In this document: positions 37,117 to 40,661 of the stretch, in pieces
Layout: each line of letters starts with the position of its first letter
How positions within the stretch are numbered: the first letter of the stretch is position 1
Assembly: GCF_013459645.1 (NCBI RefSeq)
Contig: NZ_CP054861.1
Location: forward strand, 1,228,001 to 1,292,000
Length of the DNA stretch: 64,000 nucleotides
Direction: 5' to 3'
Source: Martelella sp. NC20
GTDB lineage: Bacteria > Pseudomonadota > Alphaproteobacteria > Rhizobiales > Rhizobiaceae
Made by a program: the position numbers and the translations under genes
Notes under the pieces: model-generated
Told to the model about the DNA's origin: nothing
What the model saw: the letters and a program-made list of their open reading frames with translations, nothing else
Database searches by the model: none

Positions 37117-37974
37117 ATGAGCCGTATCGTCTATCTGAACGGAGAATGGCTGGCCGAGGAAGACGCCAAGGTCTCGATCTTCGACCGCGGCTATGTCTTC
37201 GCCGACGCCATTTACGAGGTCACCTGCGTTCTCGACGGCAAGCTGCTCGATTATGACGGCCATGCCGCGCGGCTGAAGCGTTCGACGGCGGCCATCGGGA
37301 TTGCCATGCCGACCGATGACGAAACCCTGCTTGCGCTCCACCGCGAGATCGCCGCCCGCAACGCCATGACCGCGGGGCTGATCTATCTGCAGGTCTCGCG
37401 CGGCAATCCGGGCGACCGCGATTTCATGTTCGAAAAGGGGATGACGCCGACCTTCTCGATGTTCACCCAGAAAAAGGACGTGCTCGGCGCGCCCACGGGC
37501 AAGAACGGCATCACCGTGGTGACAGTCGAGGACCTGCGCTGGGGCCGCTGCGACATCAAGACGGTGCAGCTTCTCTACCCGAGCCTCGCCAAGATGGAAG
37601 CCCATGAAAAGGGCGCCGACGATGCCTGGATGGTCAAGGACGGCCTGGTTACCGAGCAGACCTCGGCCACGGCCTATATCGTGACGGAGGGCGGCGTGGT
37701 CGTGACCCGCCCGCTGTCACGCGAAATCCTGCCCGGCATCACCCGCGCCACCGCGCTCGAAATCGCCGCCCGCAACGGCTTCAAGGTCGAGGAACGCGCC
37801 TTCAGCGTCGAAGAGGCCAGGGAAGCCAAAGAGGCCTTCTTCACCTCTGCCAGCAATTTCGTGACCCCGGTGATTTCAATCGATGGTCAGCCGATCGGCG
37901 ACGGCAAGCCCGGCGCAACCAGTCTGAAGCTGCGCGAACTCTACATCGCCGACCGGCGGGCGAACGCGATTTAG
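37117..37974 (+). CDS. D-amino-acid aminotransferase (class IV PLP)
   Basis: 285-residue fold-type IV PLP aminotransferase. The Schiff-base Lys is in GRCDIKTVQLLYPSLAKMEA, in the context known from bacterial D-alanine aminotransferase. The N-terminal GYVFADAIYEVTCV and the PLP-phosphate-binding region PGITRATALEIA are also typical. It probably interconverts D-amino acids and 2-oxo acids, for example D-Ala and D-Glu; branched-chain aminotransferase is the main alternative. AGGAG lies 6 bases before the ATG at 37117. The IS110 insertion lies downstream. Confidence 0.85.
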   Translation: MSRIVYLNGEWLAEEDAKVSIFDRGYVFADAIYEVTCVLDGKLLDYDGHAARLKRSTAAIGIAMPTDDETLLALHREIAARNAMTAGLIYLQVSRGNPGDRDFMFEKGMTPTFSMFTQKKDVLGAPTGKNGITVVTVEDLRWGRCDIKTVQLLYPSLAKMEAHEKGADDAWMVKDGLVTEQTSATAYIVTEGGVVVTRPLSREILPGITRATALEIAARNGFKVEERAFSVEEAREAKEAFFTSASNFVTPVISIDGQPIGDGKPGATSLKLRELYIADRRANAI

Positions 37975-38053
37975 CCACCAGTTATCGGCGCCTCCCATCG
38001 GACAGTGCCGTTCCGAAAAGTTTCTTTTCGAAAAGCCGTGCCACCGCCACCCG

Positions 38054-38200
38054 CGTCATCCTCGGGCTTGACCCGAGGATCTAACCACGCCTGTCGCGAG
38101 CGGCGCTGGCGTTTGGGCACACTATGGCACCACGAATGGAGAAAGCCGTTACGCCTGACGTGGTGGGATGTGCTTGGATCCTCGTGTCAAGCCCGAGGAT
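38054..38200. repeat. GTCAT-type palindromic repeat, interrupted at its end by the IS110 element
   Basis: The left end is CGTCATCCTCGGGCTTGACC with pairing CGAGGAT; the right end is ATCCTCGTGTCAAGCCCGAG then GAT. The repeat should end GATGACG, mirroring its start, and those bases are found only after the IS (39356-39362). The repeat is thus split by the insertion. The left end itself (38052-38066, minus strand) reads CCCGAGGATGACGCG, an unoccupied target of the same kind. The rest of the gap 37975-38053 has no recognised feature. Confidence 0.85.
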
Positions 38201-38218
38201 TGTTTGTTGAATGCAGGT

Positions 38219-38224
38219 TATGAT
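38219..38224 (+). promoter_or_regulatory. -10 element for the bridge RNA; -35 completed only in the circular form
   Basis: TATGAT at 38219-38224 is a good -10. In the integrated element the -35 position (38196-38201) reads AGGATT, which is poor. When the right end joins the left end across the GAT core, that position reads TTGATT, exactly 17 bases before the -10. The inferred start is near 38231, the first base of the 5' stem-loop. Confidence 0.7.
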
Positions 38225-38230
38225 GTTGGC

Positions 38231-38395
38231 GCAGCTGCGGGCTCTTTCACAGCCCGCAGCTGCTGTGGCAGGCGACCGTCCGAGGATTGGGCAACACCCG
38301 ACGTCATCAAGGTCACTGCCGCACTCTGCCATCGCTTGGAGAGTTGATTGGGCCGCTGCCTGGCACGCCCGCAAACAATCCGAAGCCTAGAGAGG
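38231..38395 (+). ncRNA. Candidate IS110 bridge RNA
   Basis: Read in order: (1) a perfect 13-bp stem-loop, 38231-38243 with 38251-38263. (2) A target loop, closed by GGCAG/GACC (38267-38277) with GGTC/CTGCC (38311-38320). Its left arm CCGAGGAT (38280-38287) equals the left chromosomal flank, and its right arm CGTCATC (38302-38308) is the reverse complement of the right flank GATGACG. (3) A donor loop closed by CTCT/AGAG and GCTT/AAGC. Its left arm AGAGTTGAT (38340-38348) equals the IS right end, and its right arm CAAACAATC (38372-38380) is the reverse complement of the IS left end GATTGTTTG. Both loops have GC apical stems. The layout matches the IS621 bridge RNA. The ends of the RNA are approximate. 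Confidence 0.85.
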
Positions 38396-38406
38396 ATAGC
38401 ATCACC

Positions 38407-39357
38407 ATGACCTTTTTGCATCATCCCCCGTGCCGTTGCCTTGGCGTCGATGTCGCCAAGGACACCATCGCCGTTTTTGACGGCCGCATCGCGACGGTCA
38501 TTCCCAACCAGCGAAAACAGATCCGGCACTTCCTGCGAAAGTGCGATGTCGACCTGGTCATTTGCGAGCCCACCGGCGGCTACGAGATCATCTTGATGGA
38601 AGAATGCCGGGGCCTGAAACTTCCGCTCCATCGCGCCGACACACGCAAGCTCAAGGCTTTCATCCGGTCACGCGGCCGCTTGGGCAAGAGCGATGCGATC
38701 GATGCGCGGGAAATGGTCGCCTATGGGCTGGAGCGATGGGCAACCCTGCCTTTATGGCATGCGGAGGACCCCTGTGAGGCAAGGCTCAAGGCTCTCGTGC
38801 GCCGCCGCGCCGATCTGGTGGCCATGAGGGTGGCCGAGCAGAATCGCGCCAAGGCCCCAAGCGCGCGCGAACTGGGCGGGCGCGACCTGGCCGCCACCTT
38901 CAAGGCCCTGCTCACTGTCCTCAACCGGCAGATCGTGCTTGTCGACAAAGCCATCAGTGCGCTGATGCGCTCCGCATCCCTTGTGCAGAGGGCCAGGACC
39001 GCAACCGCCATGAAGGGTATCGGCGAAACGACGGCCGCAGCCCTCATTGCCGCCATACCGGAACTGGGGAAGATGGACCGAAAGCAAGCAGCGGCTCTGG
39101 CGGGCCTGGCGCCTCATCCAAACGAAAGCGGCAACAAGATCGGCTACCGCAGGATGCGCGGTGGACGGCCAGCCGTGCGAACGATCCTGTTCATGCCCGC
39201 CATGCAGGCCGCACAAGGAAGGGGCGAATTCGTCGAATTCTACAAACGCCTCATCCACAACGGTAAAAAGCCAATCGTCGCCCTCGCCGCGGTCATGCGA
39301 AAGATAGTCATCACATTGAATGCAAGGTTCAGAGACCAGCTAAGCCAACAGAGTTGA
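38407..39357 (+). CDS. IS110-family transposase (bridge-RNA-guided recombinase)
   Basis: 316-residue transposase. The N-terminal RuvC-like DEDD domain shows Asp in CLGVDVAKDTIAVF, Glu in ICEPTGGYE, and acidic residues in GKSDAIDAREM. After a helical middle, the C-terminal Tnp domain carries ALAGLAPHPNESGNKIGYRRM, where the Ser in ESG is the expected nucleophile, then GGRPAVRTILFMPAMQA. No frameshift is seen, so it may be active. The ATG at 38407 comes about a dozen bases after the bridge-RNA region. Its TGA stop (39355-39357) shares two bases with the GAT core, so the ORF runs to the very end of the element. Confidence 0.93.
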   Translation: MTFLHHPPCRCLGVDVAKDTIAVFDGRIATVIPNQRKQIRHFLRKCDVDLVICEPTGGYEIILMEECRGLKLPLHRADTRKLKAFIRSRGRLGKSDAIDAREMVAYGLERWATLPLWHAEDPCEARLKALVRRRADLVAMRVAEQNRAKAPSARELGGRDLAATFKALLTVLNRQIVLVDKAISALMRSASLVQRARTATAMKGIGETTAAALIAAIPELGKMDRKQAAALAGLAPHPNESGNKIGYRRMRGGRPAVRTILFMPAMQAAQGRGEFVEFYKRLIHNGKKPIVALAAVMRKIVITLNARFRDQLSQQS

Positions 39358-39419
39358 TGACGCCGAGAAAGAGGCAGGGCCTGGACCGCGATTTGCGCCT
39401 CGAGGAAAGTCGTCTCAAG

Positions 39420-40151
39420 TCACCCCAGCGGCACCAGCGGCGCCGGCATTTCCGAGGTCTTTTCCGCGGCCTTGCAGATATCGGCGATGACGCAGGCCGG
39501 ACAGTCGGGCTTGCGGGCCTTGCAGACATAGCGGCCGTGCAGGATCAGCCAGTGGTGGGCGTGGAACAGGTATTGGTCCGGGATTATCTTTTCGAGCTTT
39601 GCCTCCACCTCGTCCGGCGTCTTGCCGGGGGCAAGGCCGATGCGGTTGGCGATCCGGAAGATATGGGTGTCGACGGCAATCGTCGCCTCGCCGAAGGCCA
39701 TCGACATCACCACATTGGCGGTCTTGCGGCCGACGCCGGGCAGGGTGACGAGTTCCTCGCGGGTCCTCGGCACCTCGCCGCCGAACTCGTCGATCAGTTT
39801 CCGGCTGAGCGCGATCACGTTTTTGGCCTTGTTGCGATAAAGCCCGATGGTTCTGATATGGGAGATCAGCCGTTCCTCGCCGAGTTCCACCATCTGTTCC
39901 GGGGTCTCGACTTCGGCAAACAGCGCGCGGGTCGCCTTGTTGACGCCGACATCGGTGGCCTGGGCGGAAAGCGCAACGGCGACCAGCAGCGTGAACGGAT
40001 TGGTGTGCTCCAGCTCGCCCTTCGGTTCCGGCCGCTGGATTTCGAAGCGGCGGAAAATCTCGCGGATTTCCGCATCGCTATAGACGCTCGGTCGACCGGT
40101 ATTTGACTTTTTGCGCCTTTGGGTGCTGACTGTGGTCTTGGGTTTTGTCAT
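39420..40151 (-). CDS. nth: Endonuclease III (DNA glycosylase/AP lyase)
   Basis: 243-residue base-excision repair enzyme for oxidised pyrimidines. The helix-hairpin-helix LVTLPGVGRKTANVV holds the catalytic Lys; the catalytic Asp is in AVDTHIFRIANRIG. The 4Fe-4S cluster ligands fit C-x6-C-x2-C-x5-C in the segment CKARKPDCPACVIADIC. An N-terminal basic tail of about 25 residues (TQRRKKSNTGRPS) precedes the core. I start at the ATG at 40151 (MTKPKTTV), 24 bases from the divergent DUF2244 gene. The IS110 insertion ends 61 bases past its stop, so the gene was not damaged. Confidence 0.94.
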   Translation of the reverse strand: MTKPKTTVSTQRRKKSNTGRPSVYSDAEIREIFRRFEIQRPEPKGELEHTNPFTLLVAVALSAQATDVGVNKATRALFAEVETPEQMVELGEERLISHIRTIGLYRNKAKNVIALSRKLIDEFGGEVPRTREELVTLPGVGRKTANVVMSMAFGEATIAVDTHIFRIANRIGLAPGKTPDEVEAKLEKIIPDQYLFHAHHWLILHGRYVCKARKPDCPACVIADICKAAEKTSEMPAPLVPLG

Positions 40152-40175
40152 TTTTTCAATCTGGCTCGACGCGCA

Positions 40176-40661
40176 ATGACCGAAGCGCTTGATGACAGGC
40201 CGGTCTTTTCGGCTGAACTTTTCCCCCATCGCTCTTTGGGGCGCAAGGGTTTTCGCGTGCTGCTCTCGCTCGCGGCCCTCGGCTTCGTGCCGAACATGCT
40301 GTATTTCACCGCCCACGGGGCCTGGCCGATCGCGCTTTACTGCCTTGCGGCATTCGCCGGCCTTTATGCCGCCTTCAGGTGGTCCTACCGGACAGCCCTT
40401 CAGCGCGAGCATGTTTCGGTGTCGCGGCTTGAGATATCGGTCACCAAGGTGACGCCGGCGGGCCGCAGGCTCGAGGCGCATTACAATCCGTTCTGGGCGC
40501 GCTTCATGGTTGATCGCCACGACGAGTTCGGCATCACCCGCATGGCGCTTGCGGGCGAGGGGCGGCGAACCGAGATCGGCGCCTTTCTCAATCCGGATGA
40601 CCGGGAGAGTTTCGCAGGGGCCTTCCGGCAGGCGCTGGCGACCGTGAAACAGCGCATTTGA
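40176..40661 (+). CDS. DUF2244 membrane protein
   Basis: 161-residue protein of the DUF2244 family. Two hydrophobic segments (about residues 27-45 and 50-66) lie near the N-terminus, followed by a soluble beta-rich domain: VSVSRLEISVTKVTPAGR, then FWARFMVDRHDEFGITRMAL. Members are inner-membrane proteins of unknown role, often near cytochrome oxidase or nth genes in alphaproteobacteria. It begins 24 bases from the nth start (divergent) and precedes the Ada-like gene by 75 bases. Confidence 0.75.
   Translation: MTEALDDRPVFSAELFPHRSLGRKGFRVLLSLAALGFVPNMLYFTAHGAWPIALYCLAAFAGLYAAFRWSYRTALQREHVSVSRLEISVTKVTPAGRRLEAHYNPFWARFMVDRHDEFGITRMALAGEGRRTEIGAFLNPDDRESFAGAFRQALATVKQRI

What the first reader, a model, noticed from the sequence alone, without database searches (positions are those of the whole stretch)
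38231..38395. A complete bridge RNA can be read in the IS110 left end
All four guide arms predicted for a bridge RNA are present and in the right order. Target loop: CCGAGGAT (38280-38287) equals the left flank (38193-38200), and CGTCATC (38302-38308) is complementary to the right flank GATGACG (39356-39362). Donor loop: AGAGTTGAT (38340-38348) equals the right end (39350-39358), and CAAACAATC (38372-38380) is complementary to the left end GATTGTTTG (38198-38206). Every match includes the core GAT. Each loop is closed by a stem, and a 13-bp stem-loop comes first. This makes the element a guided recombinase with a legible target and donor code. From established knowledge, IS621 (IS110 family) works this way; this copy in a rhizobial-type chromosome has, to my knowledge, not been described.
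Basis: partly seen in the sequence, partly recalled or inferred. Interest (0 to 1): 0.92.

Follow-up and report, generated by a model that had tools for sequence, protein, structure and literature searches.

The report
IS110 jumping gene with RNA address
This is a small bacterial jumping gene of a known kind (IS110) that appears to carry its own guide RNA; copies and relatives show that the RNA's address matches the genomic sites it lands in, so it is a clear new example of a recently discovered mechanism rather than a new mechanism.

Summary
The element (38201-39358, 1158 bp) has eight copies in the genome; seven of eight sit exactly in CCGAGGAT|GACG, the site spelled by the RNA's target loop, and the eighth has two mismatches. 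One exact copy lies inside an open frame without a significant hairpin, so sequence rather than hairpin shape marks the site. In 45 loci with 17 guides, guide and flank agree (mean 5.96 of 7; 0 of 50,000 permutations as high), although related elements are not independent. The predicted RNA has three stem-loops, two with compensatory changes. The circle would create a promoter-like pair that the integrated form lacks. The recombinase has both IS110 domains and IS621's catalytic motifs. Corrections: only AT, not GAT, is shared by target and donor across relatives; the C after AT in two arms sits where IS621 has handshake guides, though only the next base pairs as IS621 would predict. Most sites are CGTC-tagged REP repeats, whose conserved head CGTCAT equals the right target guide plus core. 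Against a simple reading, the fourth right base agrees in 29 of 40 loci. Verdict: a well-supported new member of a known kind. RNA expression and activity were not testable.

The parts
38201..39358 (+). IS110-group element, 1158 bp counted with one AT core
   Evidence: 8 copies of 1158 bp; the other seven differ from this one at 0-2 positions; boundaries from the copies
38199..38200 (+). left copy of the AT core
   Evidence: base before AT varies with the flank in relatives
39357..39358 (+). right copy of the AT core
38192..38200 (+). left target half: 3' arm of a REP hairpin (5' arm 38178-38186)
   Evidence: inverted repeat 8 of 9, loop 5, shuffle fraction 0.004
39359..39362 (+). right target half GACG (CGTC tag of the REP read on the other strand)
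38054..38065 (-). unoccupied exact target site in the neighbouring REP
38231..38386 (+). predicted bridge RNA; ends inferred from promoter position and structure, true ends unknown
   Evidence: fold and covariation
38231..38263 (+). 5' stem-loop, 13 bp
   Evidence: 8 of 11 aligned pairs have changes on both sides
38280..38287 (+). left target guide with core, CCGAGGAT
   Evidence: equals left flank in 7 of 8 copies; changes with the flank in relatives
38302..38307 (+). right target guide with core, CGTCAT, complementary to ATGACG
   Evidence: 7 of 8 copies
38308..38309 (+). place of the handshake guide in the target loop (CA)
   Evidence: second base pairs with donor in 15 of 15 and with target in 0 of 15 elements; first base pairs with donor in 14 and with target in 13
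38340..38348 (+). left donor guide with core, AGAGTTGAT
   Evidence: equals 39350-39358
38372..38379 (+). right donor guide with core, CAAACAAT, complementary to ATTGTTTG
   Evidence: six relatives with left end ATTGTTCG or GTTGTTCG have GAACAAT in the guide
38380..38381 (+). place of the handshake guide in the donor loop (CC)
   Evidence: second base pairs with target in 14 of 15 and with donor in 0 of 15; first base pairs with target in 14 and with donor in 15
38219..38224 (+). -10-like TATGAT; in the circle it lies 17 bp from TTGATT made by joining 39354-39358 to 38201
   Evidence: 15 of 15 elements: TTGATT then TANNNT at 17 or 18 bp (pattern judged afterwards, no shuffle control)
38407..39357 (+). 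recombinase, 316 aa; stop TGA (39355-39357) lies in the donor sequence
   Evidence: PF01548 38.9 bits, PF02371 58.5 bits; IS621 chain E 3.2e-22
39350..39358 (+). left donor AGAGTTGAT (right end of the element)
38201..38206 (+). right donor TGTTTG (left end of the element), after the AT core

Best explanation
It is an IS110-group insertion sequence with a left-end bridge RNA. The element excises as a circle; joining its ends makes a sigma-70-like promoter (TTGATT-17-TATGAT) that transcribes the RNA, starting near 38231. The recombinase binds the RNA. The target loop pairs with both strands of CCGAGG-AT-GACG, the donor loop with both strands of AGAGTTG-AT-TGTTTG, and the serine/DEDD active sites exchange strands at the AT core. 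Guide-flank matching, predicted fold, boundaries and domains are shown by sequence. Excision, transcription, RNA binding and strand exchange are inferred from IS621 and were not observed.
For: Eight copies, left end 100% alike over 223 nt in 8 of 8; 7 of 8 flanks equal the guide-specified site, 1 has two mismatches. The joined flanks of L011 match an unoccupied repeat, L052, at 59 of 60 positions across the junction (the other seven copies match their best of 30 sites at 29-53 of 60). L012 lies in a 514-codon stop-to-stop frame at codon 441, has no significant hairpin, yet has the exact 12-mer. Unoccupied CCGAGGATGACG: 50 in the genome, reversed control 2; of the 30 read, 19 have the REP stem and 11 do not. 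Guide-flank matching over 45 loci and 17 guides: 5.96 of 7, permutation mean 3.82, maximum 5.25, 0 of 50,000. L141: right guide CCTCAT with right flank ATGAGG, where the other 39 counted loci have GAC. Structure: 98.2% of cells paired and 14 pairs with changes on both sides, 0 of 500 shuffles as high. The RNA model finds the RNA in 13 of 384 family genomes, 8 of them not used to build it. Recombinase D15, E54, D96, D99 and S241 by motif, with D96, D99 and S241 in the stretch aligned to IS621.
Against: No RNA or activity data. The fourth right-target base agrees in only 29 of 40 loci and the first left base in 21 of 45. Imperfect insertions exist: L015, L056, L096, L099, L111; L113, left out of the counts, has AACG to the right against guide CGTC. 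Permutations do not remove relatedness; the right-side tests are weaker (62 of 50,000; 490 of 20,000 for the fourth base alone). One structure measure, further pair types, was not above shuffles (144 of 500), and the donor-loop helices hardly vary, so they give no covariation support. At position 7 both loops can pair with their own DNA (13 and 15 of 15), which in IS621 hinders exchange (PMC11208158, section 11). No Rfam family matched. The -35-like hexamer has 4 of 6 consensus bases.
Confidence: 0.94

Rival explanations
1. No guide RNA: the arms are copies of end and target DNA left in the element, and the protein recognises the REP hairpin or sequence itself.
For: 24 of 38 sites have a hairpin at shuffle fraction under 0.05, and REP sequences are known IS targets (PMC1525189, passages).
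Against: Each loop has one sense and one antisense arm, as pairing needs; arms agree with flanks across guides; they sit in a fold with compensatory changes; L012 has no significant hairpin but the exact 12-mer.
Confidence: 0.03
2. The RNA exists but works chiefly as a 5' leader or small regulator of transposase expression, and target matching is secondary.
For: Small RNAs were thought to modulate the IS110 member ISPpu9 (mentioned in PMC11208160, section 5); the RNA lies directly upstream of the gene.
Against: Regulation does not predict guide-flank agreement across 17 guides.
Confidence: 0.03
3. A variant of the same mechanism: the working form is a short processed RNA with the target loop only, as reported for seekRNAs, and the donor loop is not needed. 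(This overlaps with the best explanation, so its odds are not exclusive of it.)
For: A 74-nt seekRNA was found for the IS110-type ISEc21 (PMC11187229, passages).
Against: The donor loop is highly conserved and the right donor guide follows the T/C change of the left end.
Confidence: 0.15

Closest known systems
IS621 and its bridge RNA (IS110 group, E. coli)
   Same: DEDD plus serine recombinase motifs, left-end RNA with 5' stem-loop, target loop and donor loop, four arms in the same order and strands, promoter-like pair across the circle junction, two-base core, REP target
   Different: core AT instead of CT; other target and donor sequences; recombinase only distantly alike (phmmer E 3.2e-22)
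ISCro4 (solved structure 9t56)
   Same: related recombinase (E 1.6e-22)
   Different: guides not compared here
ISRm19 (IS110, Sinorhizobium meliloti)
   Same: IS110 element in REP sequences of a rhizobial genome, 4 of 4 copies (PMC1525189, passages)
   Different: its sequence was not compared here
seekRNA of ISEc21 (IS110 type)
   Same: upstream RNA with target matches on both strands, top-strand match 3' of the bottom-strand match
   Different: described as a shorter processed RNA (PMC11187229, passages)

Membership tests
[quoted passage not shown]
   38.9 and 58.5 bits, both over cut-off
IS110 family, IS110 group | catalytic D, E, D, D and serine | tested here: met
   motifs at 15, 54, 96, 99 and 241; D96, D99 and S241 within the IS621 alignment; D15 and E54 by motif only; the serine is matched to IS621 S241 assuming a two-residue offset of the chain numbering
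IS110 family, IS110 group | long non-coding left end, short right end | tested here: met
   206 nt before the ATG; stop codon reaches the right core. An upstream in-frame TTG at 38287 exists
IS110 bridge RNA | 5' stem-loop and two further stem-loops with internal loops | tested here: met
   predicted fold; donor-loop helices without covariation support
IS110 bridge RNA | target loop pairs with both target strands, donor loop with both donor strands, core included | tested here: met
   by sequence
IS110 bridge RNA | handshake guides pair with the other DNA after exchange | tested here: inconclusive
   second position fits in 15 and 14 of 15; first position pairs with both DNAs
IS110 bridge RNA | promoter rebuilt across the circle junction | tested here: inconclusive
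   sequence pattern in 15 of 15 elements, no control and no activity test
IS110 bridge RNA | RNA is made, binds the recombinase and is needed for recombination | not testable with these tools
   needs wet-lab work
IS1111 group | RNA in the right end | tested here: not met
   RNA is in the left end and the right end has no non-coding stretch
IS1111 group | subterminal inverted repeats of 7-17 bp | not tested
   no scan was made
CGTC-tagged REP as target | hairpin whose stem begins with AT next to an unpaired CGTC, TGTC or CCTC tag | tested here: met
   this copy and 5 of the other 7 in the genome; 24 of 38 loci overall at shuffle fraction under 0.05; definition from PMC3733652 passages

The most novel reading that the evidence does not exclude
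An alphaproteobacterial IS110 clade is a dedicated parasite of CGTC-tagged REP repeats. Its right target guide plus core is the repeat's own head (CGTCAT, with TGTC and CCTC versions), while the left guide follows a REP stem present in each host, so guides are naturally reprogrammed by REP divergence. This would give CGTC REPs, reported to lack an associated transposase, a partner recombinase that may rearrange DNA between repeats.
Probability: 0.3. Interest if true: 0.55.

Novelty: new member of a known kind. Interest (0 to 1): 0.42.

Why it matters
It is a natural series: relatives whose guides differ by one or a few bases together with their sites. That makes two open points testable: how a guide is reprogrammed in nature, and how much mismatch is tolerated (L015 and L056 are natural imperfect insertions). 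It also links RNA-guided recombination to CGTC REPs, and offers a compact recombinase (316 aa) with a legible 12-bp target.

Tried and rejected
Rfam scan of 37500-40500: the only match up to E 1 was FtrB (E 0.79, 23.7 bits against a threshold of 66), taken as chance. The first RNA alignment A1 was faulty because some loci were read on the wrong strand; replaced by A2. An orthologous empty site was sought beside the gene at the right: of the 12 other genomes of the genus, by my reading of the printed sequence five have the window's left-hand gene next to it with a short gap and no REP, and seven have something else; only G383 has CCGAGGATGAC there. This is no strict orthologous empty site. GAT as core was rejected from relatives. 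A pure hairpin target was rejected because L012 and L015 lack a significant hairpin. The protein search of plasmids found no match at 1e-40 and, at 1e-10, 1936 records, all under 60% identity. No structure prediction was run, since solved relatives exist.

Rows left out of the guide-flank count: 45 loci were used (38, 7). Not used: L058 (same element as L085); L061, L145 and L113 (contig starts before the left flank is complete); L062, L063, L073, L074, L079, L084, L087-L095, L114 (cut, broken or not examined); L064-L067, L103, L115-L118 (no pattern found) and L144, L146-L148 (none). Further copies listed without a locus in G383, G177 and G222 were not read. Five of the 45 lack a read right flank, so right-flank counts are of 40.

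Full report
WHAT IS THERE. The window lies at C1:1228001-1292000 of a 6.1-Mb genome. The genus is probably Martelella: a genome of the same genus (G222) has matches at the same contig numbers and nearly the same positions as Martelella mediterranea USBA-857. This identification is inferred. The element runs from 38201 to 39358 (1158 bp with one core). It encodes a 316-aa recombinase (38407-39357) with PF01548 and PF02371. The catalytic motifs D15, E54, D96, D99 and S241 are present; D96, D99 and S241 lie in the stretch that aligns with solved IS621 and ISCro4 chains (E 3.2e-22 and 1.6e-22).

THE OBSERVATION. All four arms in order occurred in 0 of 20,000 first-order Markov sequences. The 172-nt RNA folds at -81.4 kcal/mol, z -3.97.

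COPIES IN THE SAME GENOME. The 223-nt left end is found eight times at 100% identity, and the other seven elements differ from this one at 0-2 positions. Seven of eight flanks read CCGAGGAT and (GAT)GACG; L015 reads CCGGGGAT and GACA. The exact 12-mer CCGAGGATGACG occurs 50 more times unoccupied, against 2 for the reversed pattern. Of the 30 of these that were fetched, 19 have the REP stem upstream and 11 do not, so the reversed pattern understates the background of the bare 12-mer. The joined flanks of L011 match an unoccupied repeat, L052, at 59 of 60 positions across the junction; the other copies match their best of the 30 at 29-53 of 60. L012 lies within a 514-codon stop-to-stop frame at codon 441 (it resembles a TctA-type transporter, recalled, not searched) and shows no significant hairpin, yet has the exact 12-mer. 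That separates guide matching from hairpin recognition.

RELATIVES. Protein searches found relatives in 13 of 394 family genomes, 9 of 397 order genomes and 7 of 385 class genomes at E 1e-40, each count including this genome, and 11 loci in named genomes. Guides and flanks were read in 38 loci and then 7 more. Examples: G383 guide CCGAGCAT with flank CCGAGCAT in 3 of 4 copies counted; G251 CCCGGAAT with CCCGGAAT in 4 of 4; G177 TTCCGGGAT in 4 of 4; L102 GCGTAGGAT with GCGTAGGAT. Two further copies read afterwards fit too. Over 45 loci and 17 guides the mean match is 5.96 of 7, against a permutation mean of 3.82 and maximum of 5.25 (0 of 50,000). By position, left bases 3-7 agree in 42-44 of 45 loci, base 2 in 38 and base 1 in 21; the two core bases agree in 43 and 44. 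On the right, the first three bases agree in 40 of 40 and the fourth in 29 of 40. L141 is the one counted element with right guide CCTCAT, and its right flank is ATGAGG. The right side is weaker in permutation (62 of 50,000; the fourth base alone, 490 of 20,000). L113, not counted because its contig starts in the left flank, has AACG on the right against guide CGTC. Permutation ignores shared ancestry, so these figures are support, not exact probabilities.

GUIDES AND HOST REPEATS. Counts of exact guided sites differ by host: CCCGGAATGACG 27 in G251 (whose guide it is), 36 in G177, 4 in this genome, 5 in G687, 2 in G768; TTCCGGGATGACG 109 in G177 (whose guide it is), 2 in G251, 0 in the other three; GCG(G/T)AGGATGACA 19 in G768, 4 in G687, 1 in G177, 0 in the other two. 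Reversed controls were 0 in these three calls. CCGAG(G/C)ATGAC occurs 110, 113, 94 and 79 times in G000, G383, G317 and G251, with reversed controls of 3, 1, 3 and 3. Two results go against a tight host match: G251 holds more CCGAG(G/C)ATGAC (79, a shorter and two-fold degenerate pattern) than sites of its own guide (27), and G687 holds only 4 exact sites of its guide. G317 had no element in the searches, so the repeat does not depend on the element. Of 38 insertion sites, 24 show a hairpin at shuffle fraction under 0.05 and 14 do not. The sites resemble the CGTC-tagged REPs of PMC3733652, whose passages give an AT at the stem start, the tag variants TGTC and CCTC, and no transposase association. 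Right guides read here are CGTC, TGTC or CCTC, except AGTC in L097 and GGTC in L072.

RNA STRUCTURE. The alignment of 15 elements supports a 5' stem-loop, a target loop and a donor loop. Of cells, 98.2% pair and 14 pairs have changes on both sides; 0 of 500 shuffles reach either, while the measure 'further pair types' is reached by 144 of 500. Sliding the partner by 1-3 columns gives 36.6-49.7% paired. The support comes from helices 1 and 2; the donor-loop helices are almost invariant and say little. The structure was derived from the same alignment, which favours it over slid versions. The model found the RNA in 13 of 384 family genomes, this one included; eight of the 13 were not used to build it.

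CORE AND HANDSHAKE. Only AT is common to targets and donors of all relatives read, so I take AT as the core; L085 and L111 have GT at the left, which a mismatch at the first core base or later mutation could explain. After the core, the target loop reads CA and the donor loop CC. At position 6 the target-loop base pairs with the donor in 15 of 15 and with the target in 0 of 15; the donor-loop base pairs with the target in 14 of 15 and with the donor in 0 of 15. That is the arrangement which favoured exchange in IS621 (PMC11208158, section 11). At position 7 both kinds of pairing are possible: target loop with donor 14 and with target 13 of 15, donor loop with target 14 and with donor 15 of 15. 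Pairing with the own DNA hindered exchange in IS621, so position 7 does not fit simply. The G383 row of that tally used L056, whose flank has G before AT; the other G383 copies have C, where the donor-loop base would not pair with the target.

PROMOTER. In the circle, all 15 elements read TTGATT followed at 17 bp (11) or 18 bp (4) by TANNNT; the integrated form has AGGATT or similar instead. The pattern was judged after seeing it and has no shuffle control. The predicted start fits 38231. The stop codon TGA lies within the donor sequence, so the recombinase gene and the donor site overlap.

COMPARISON AND NOVELTY. Papers seen: PMC11208160 (abstract, sections 5, 6, 7, 12, and part 1 of section 43), PMC11208158 (abstract, sections 7, 10, 11), and passages of PMC1525189, PMC3733652 and PMC11187229. 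PMC11208160 predicts bridge RNAs in 85.7% of catalogued IS110s and reports covariation on 5,511 target and 2,201 donor pairs, so kind and mechanism are known; this element may be among those pairs, which I could not check. A search for Martelella with IS110 found no paper. Searches on IS110, REP and rhizobia or Alphaproteobacteria were seen only as listings, apart from the papers named above. The link between CGTC REP heads and an IS110 clade is the part that may be new; IS110 elements in rhizobial REPs were already known (ISRm19).

Noticed in passing
window 12698, 26128, 33529 (+), 36702, 38054 (-): Five unoccupied exact CCGAGGATGACG sites in the window. Two (12698, 38054) have the REP stem and three do not (L041-L045); 38054 lies about 135 bp from the insertion in a neighbouring oppositely oriented REP.
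   Followed up: partly
L012 (C1:4531500-4537000): One copy of the element interrupts a 514-codon stop-to-stop frame resembling a TctA-type transporter at codon 441 (name recalled).
   Followed up: partly
39350-39357: The recombinase's last codons and stop TGA are also the left donor sequence; the 35 loci printed, down to about 43% identity, keep GAGTTGA near the gene's end.
   Followed up: partly
genome G000: Thirteen of the 21 matches to the IS110 domain lie outside this element's eight copies, in several types; their guides were not read.
   Followed up: no
L015 and L056: Natural imperfect insertions: two mismatches each to their guides, in L015 within this genome and in L056 in G383.
   Followed up: no
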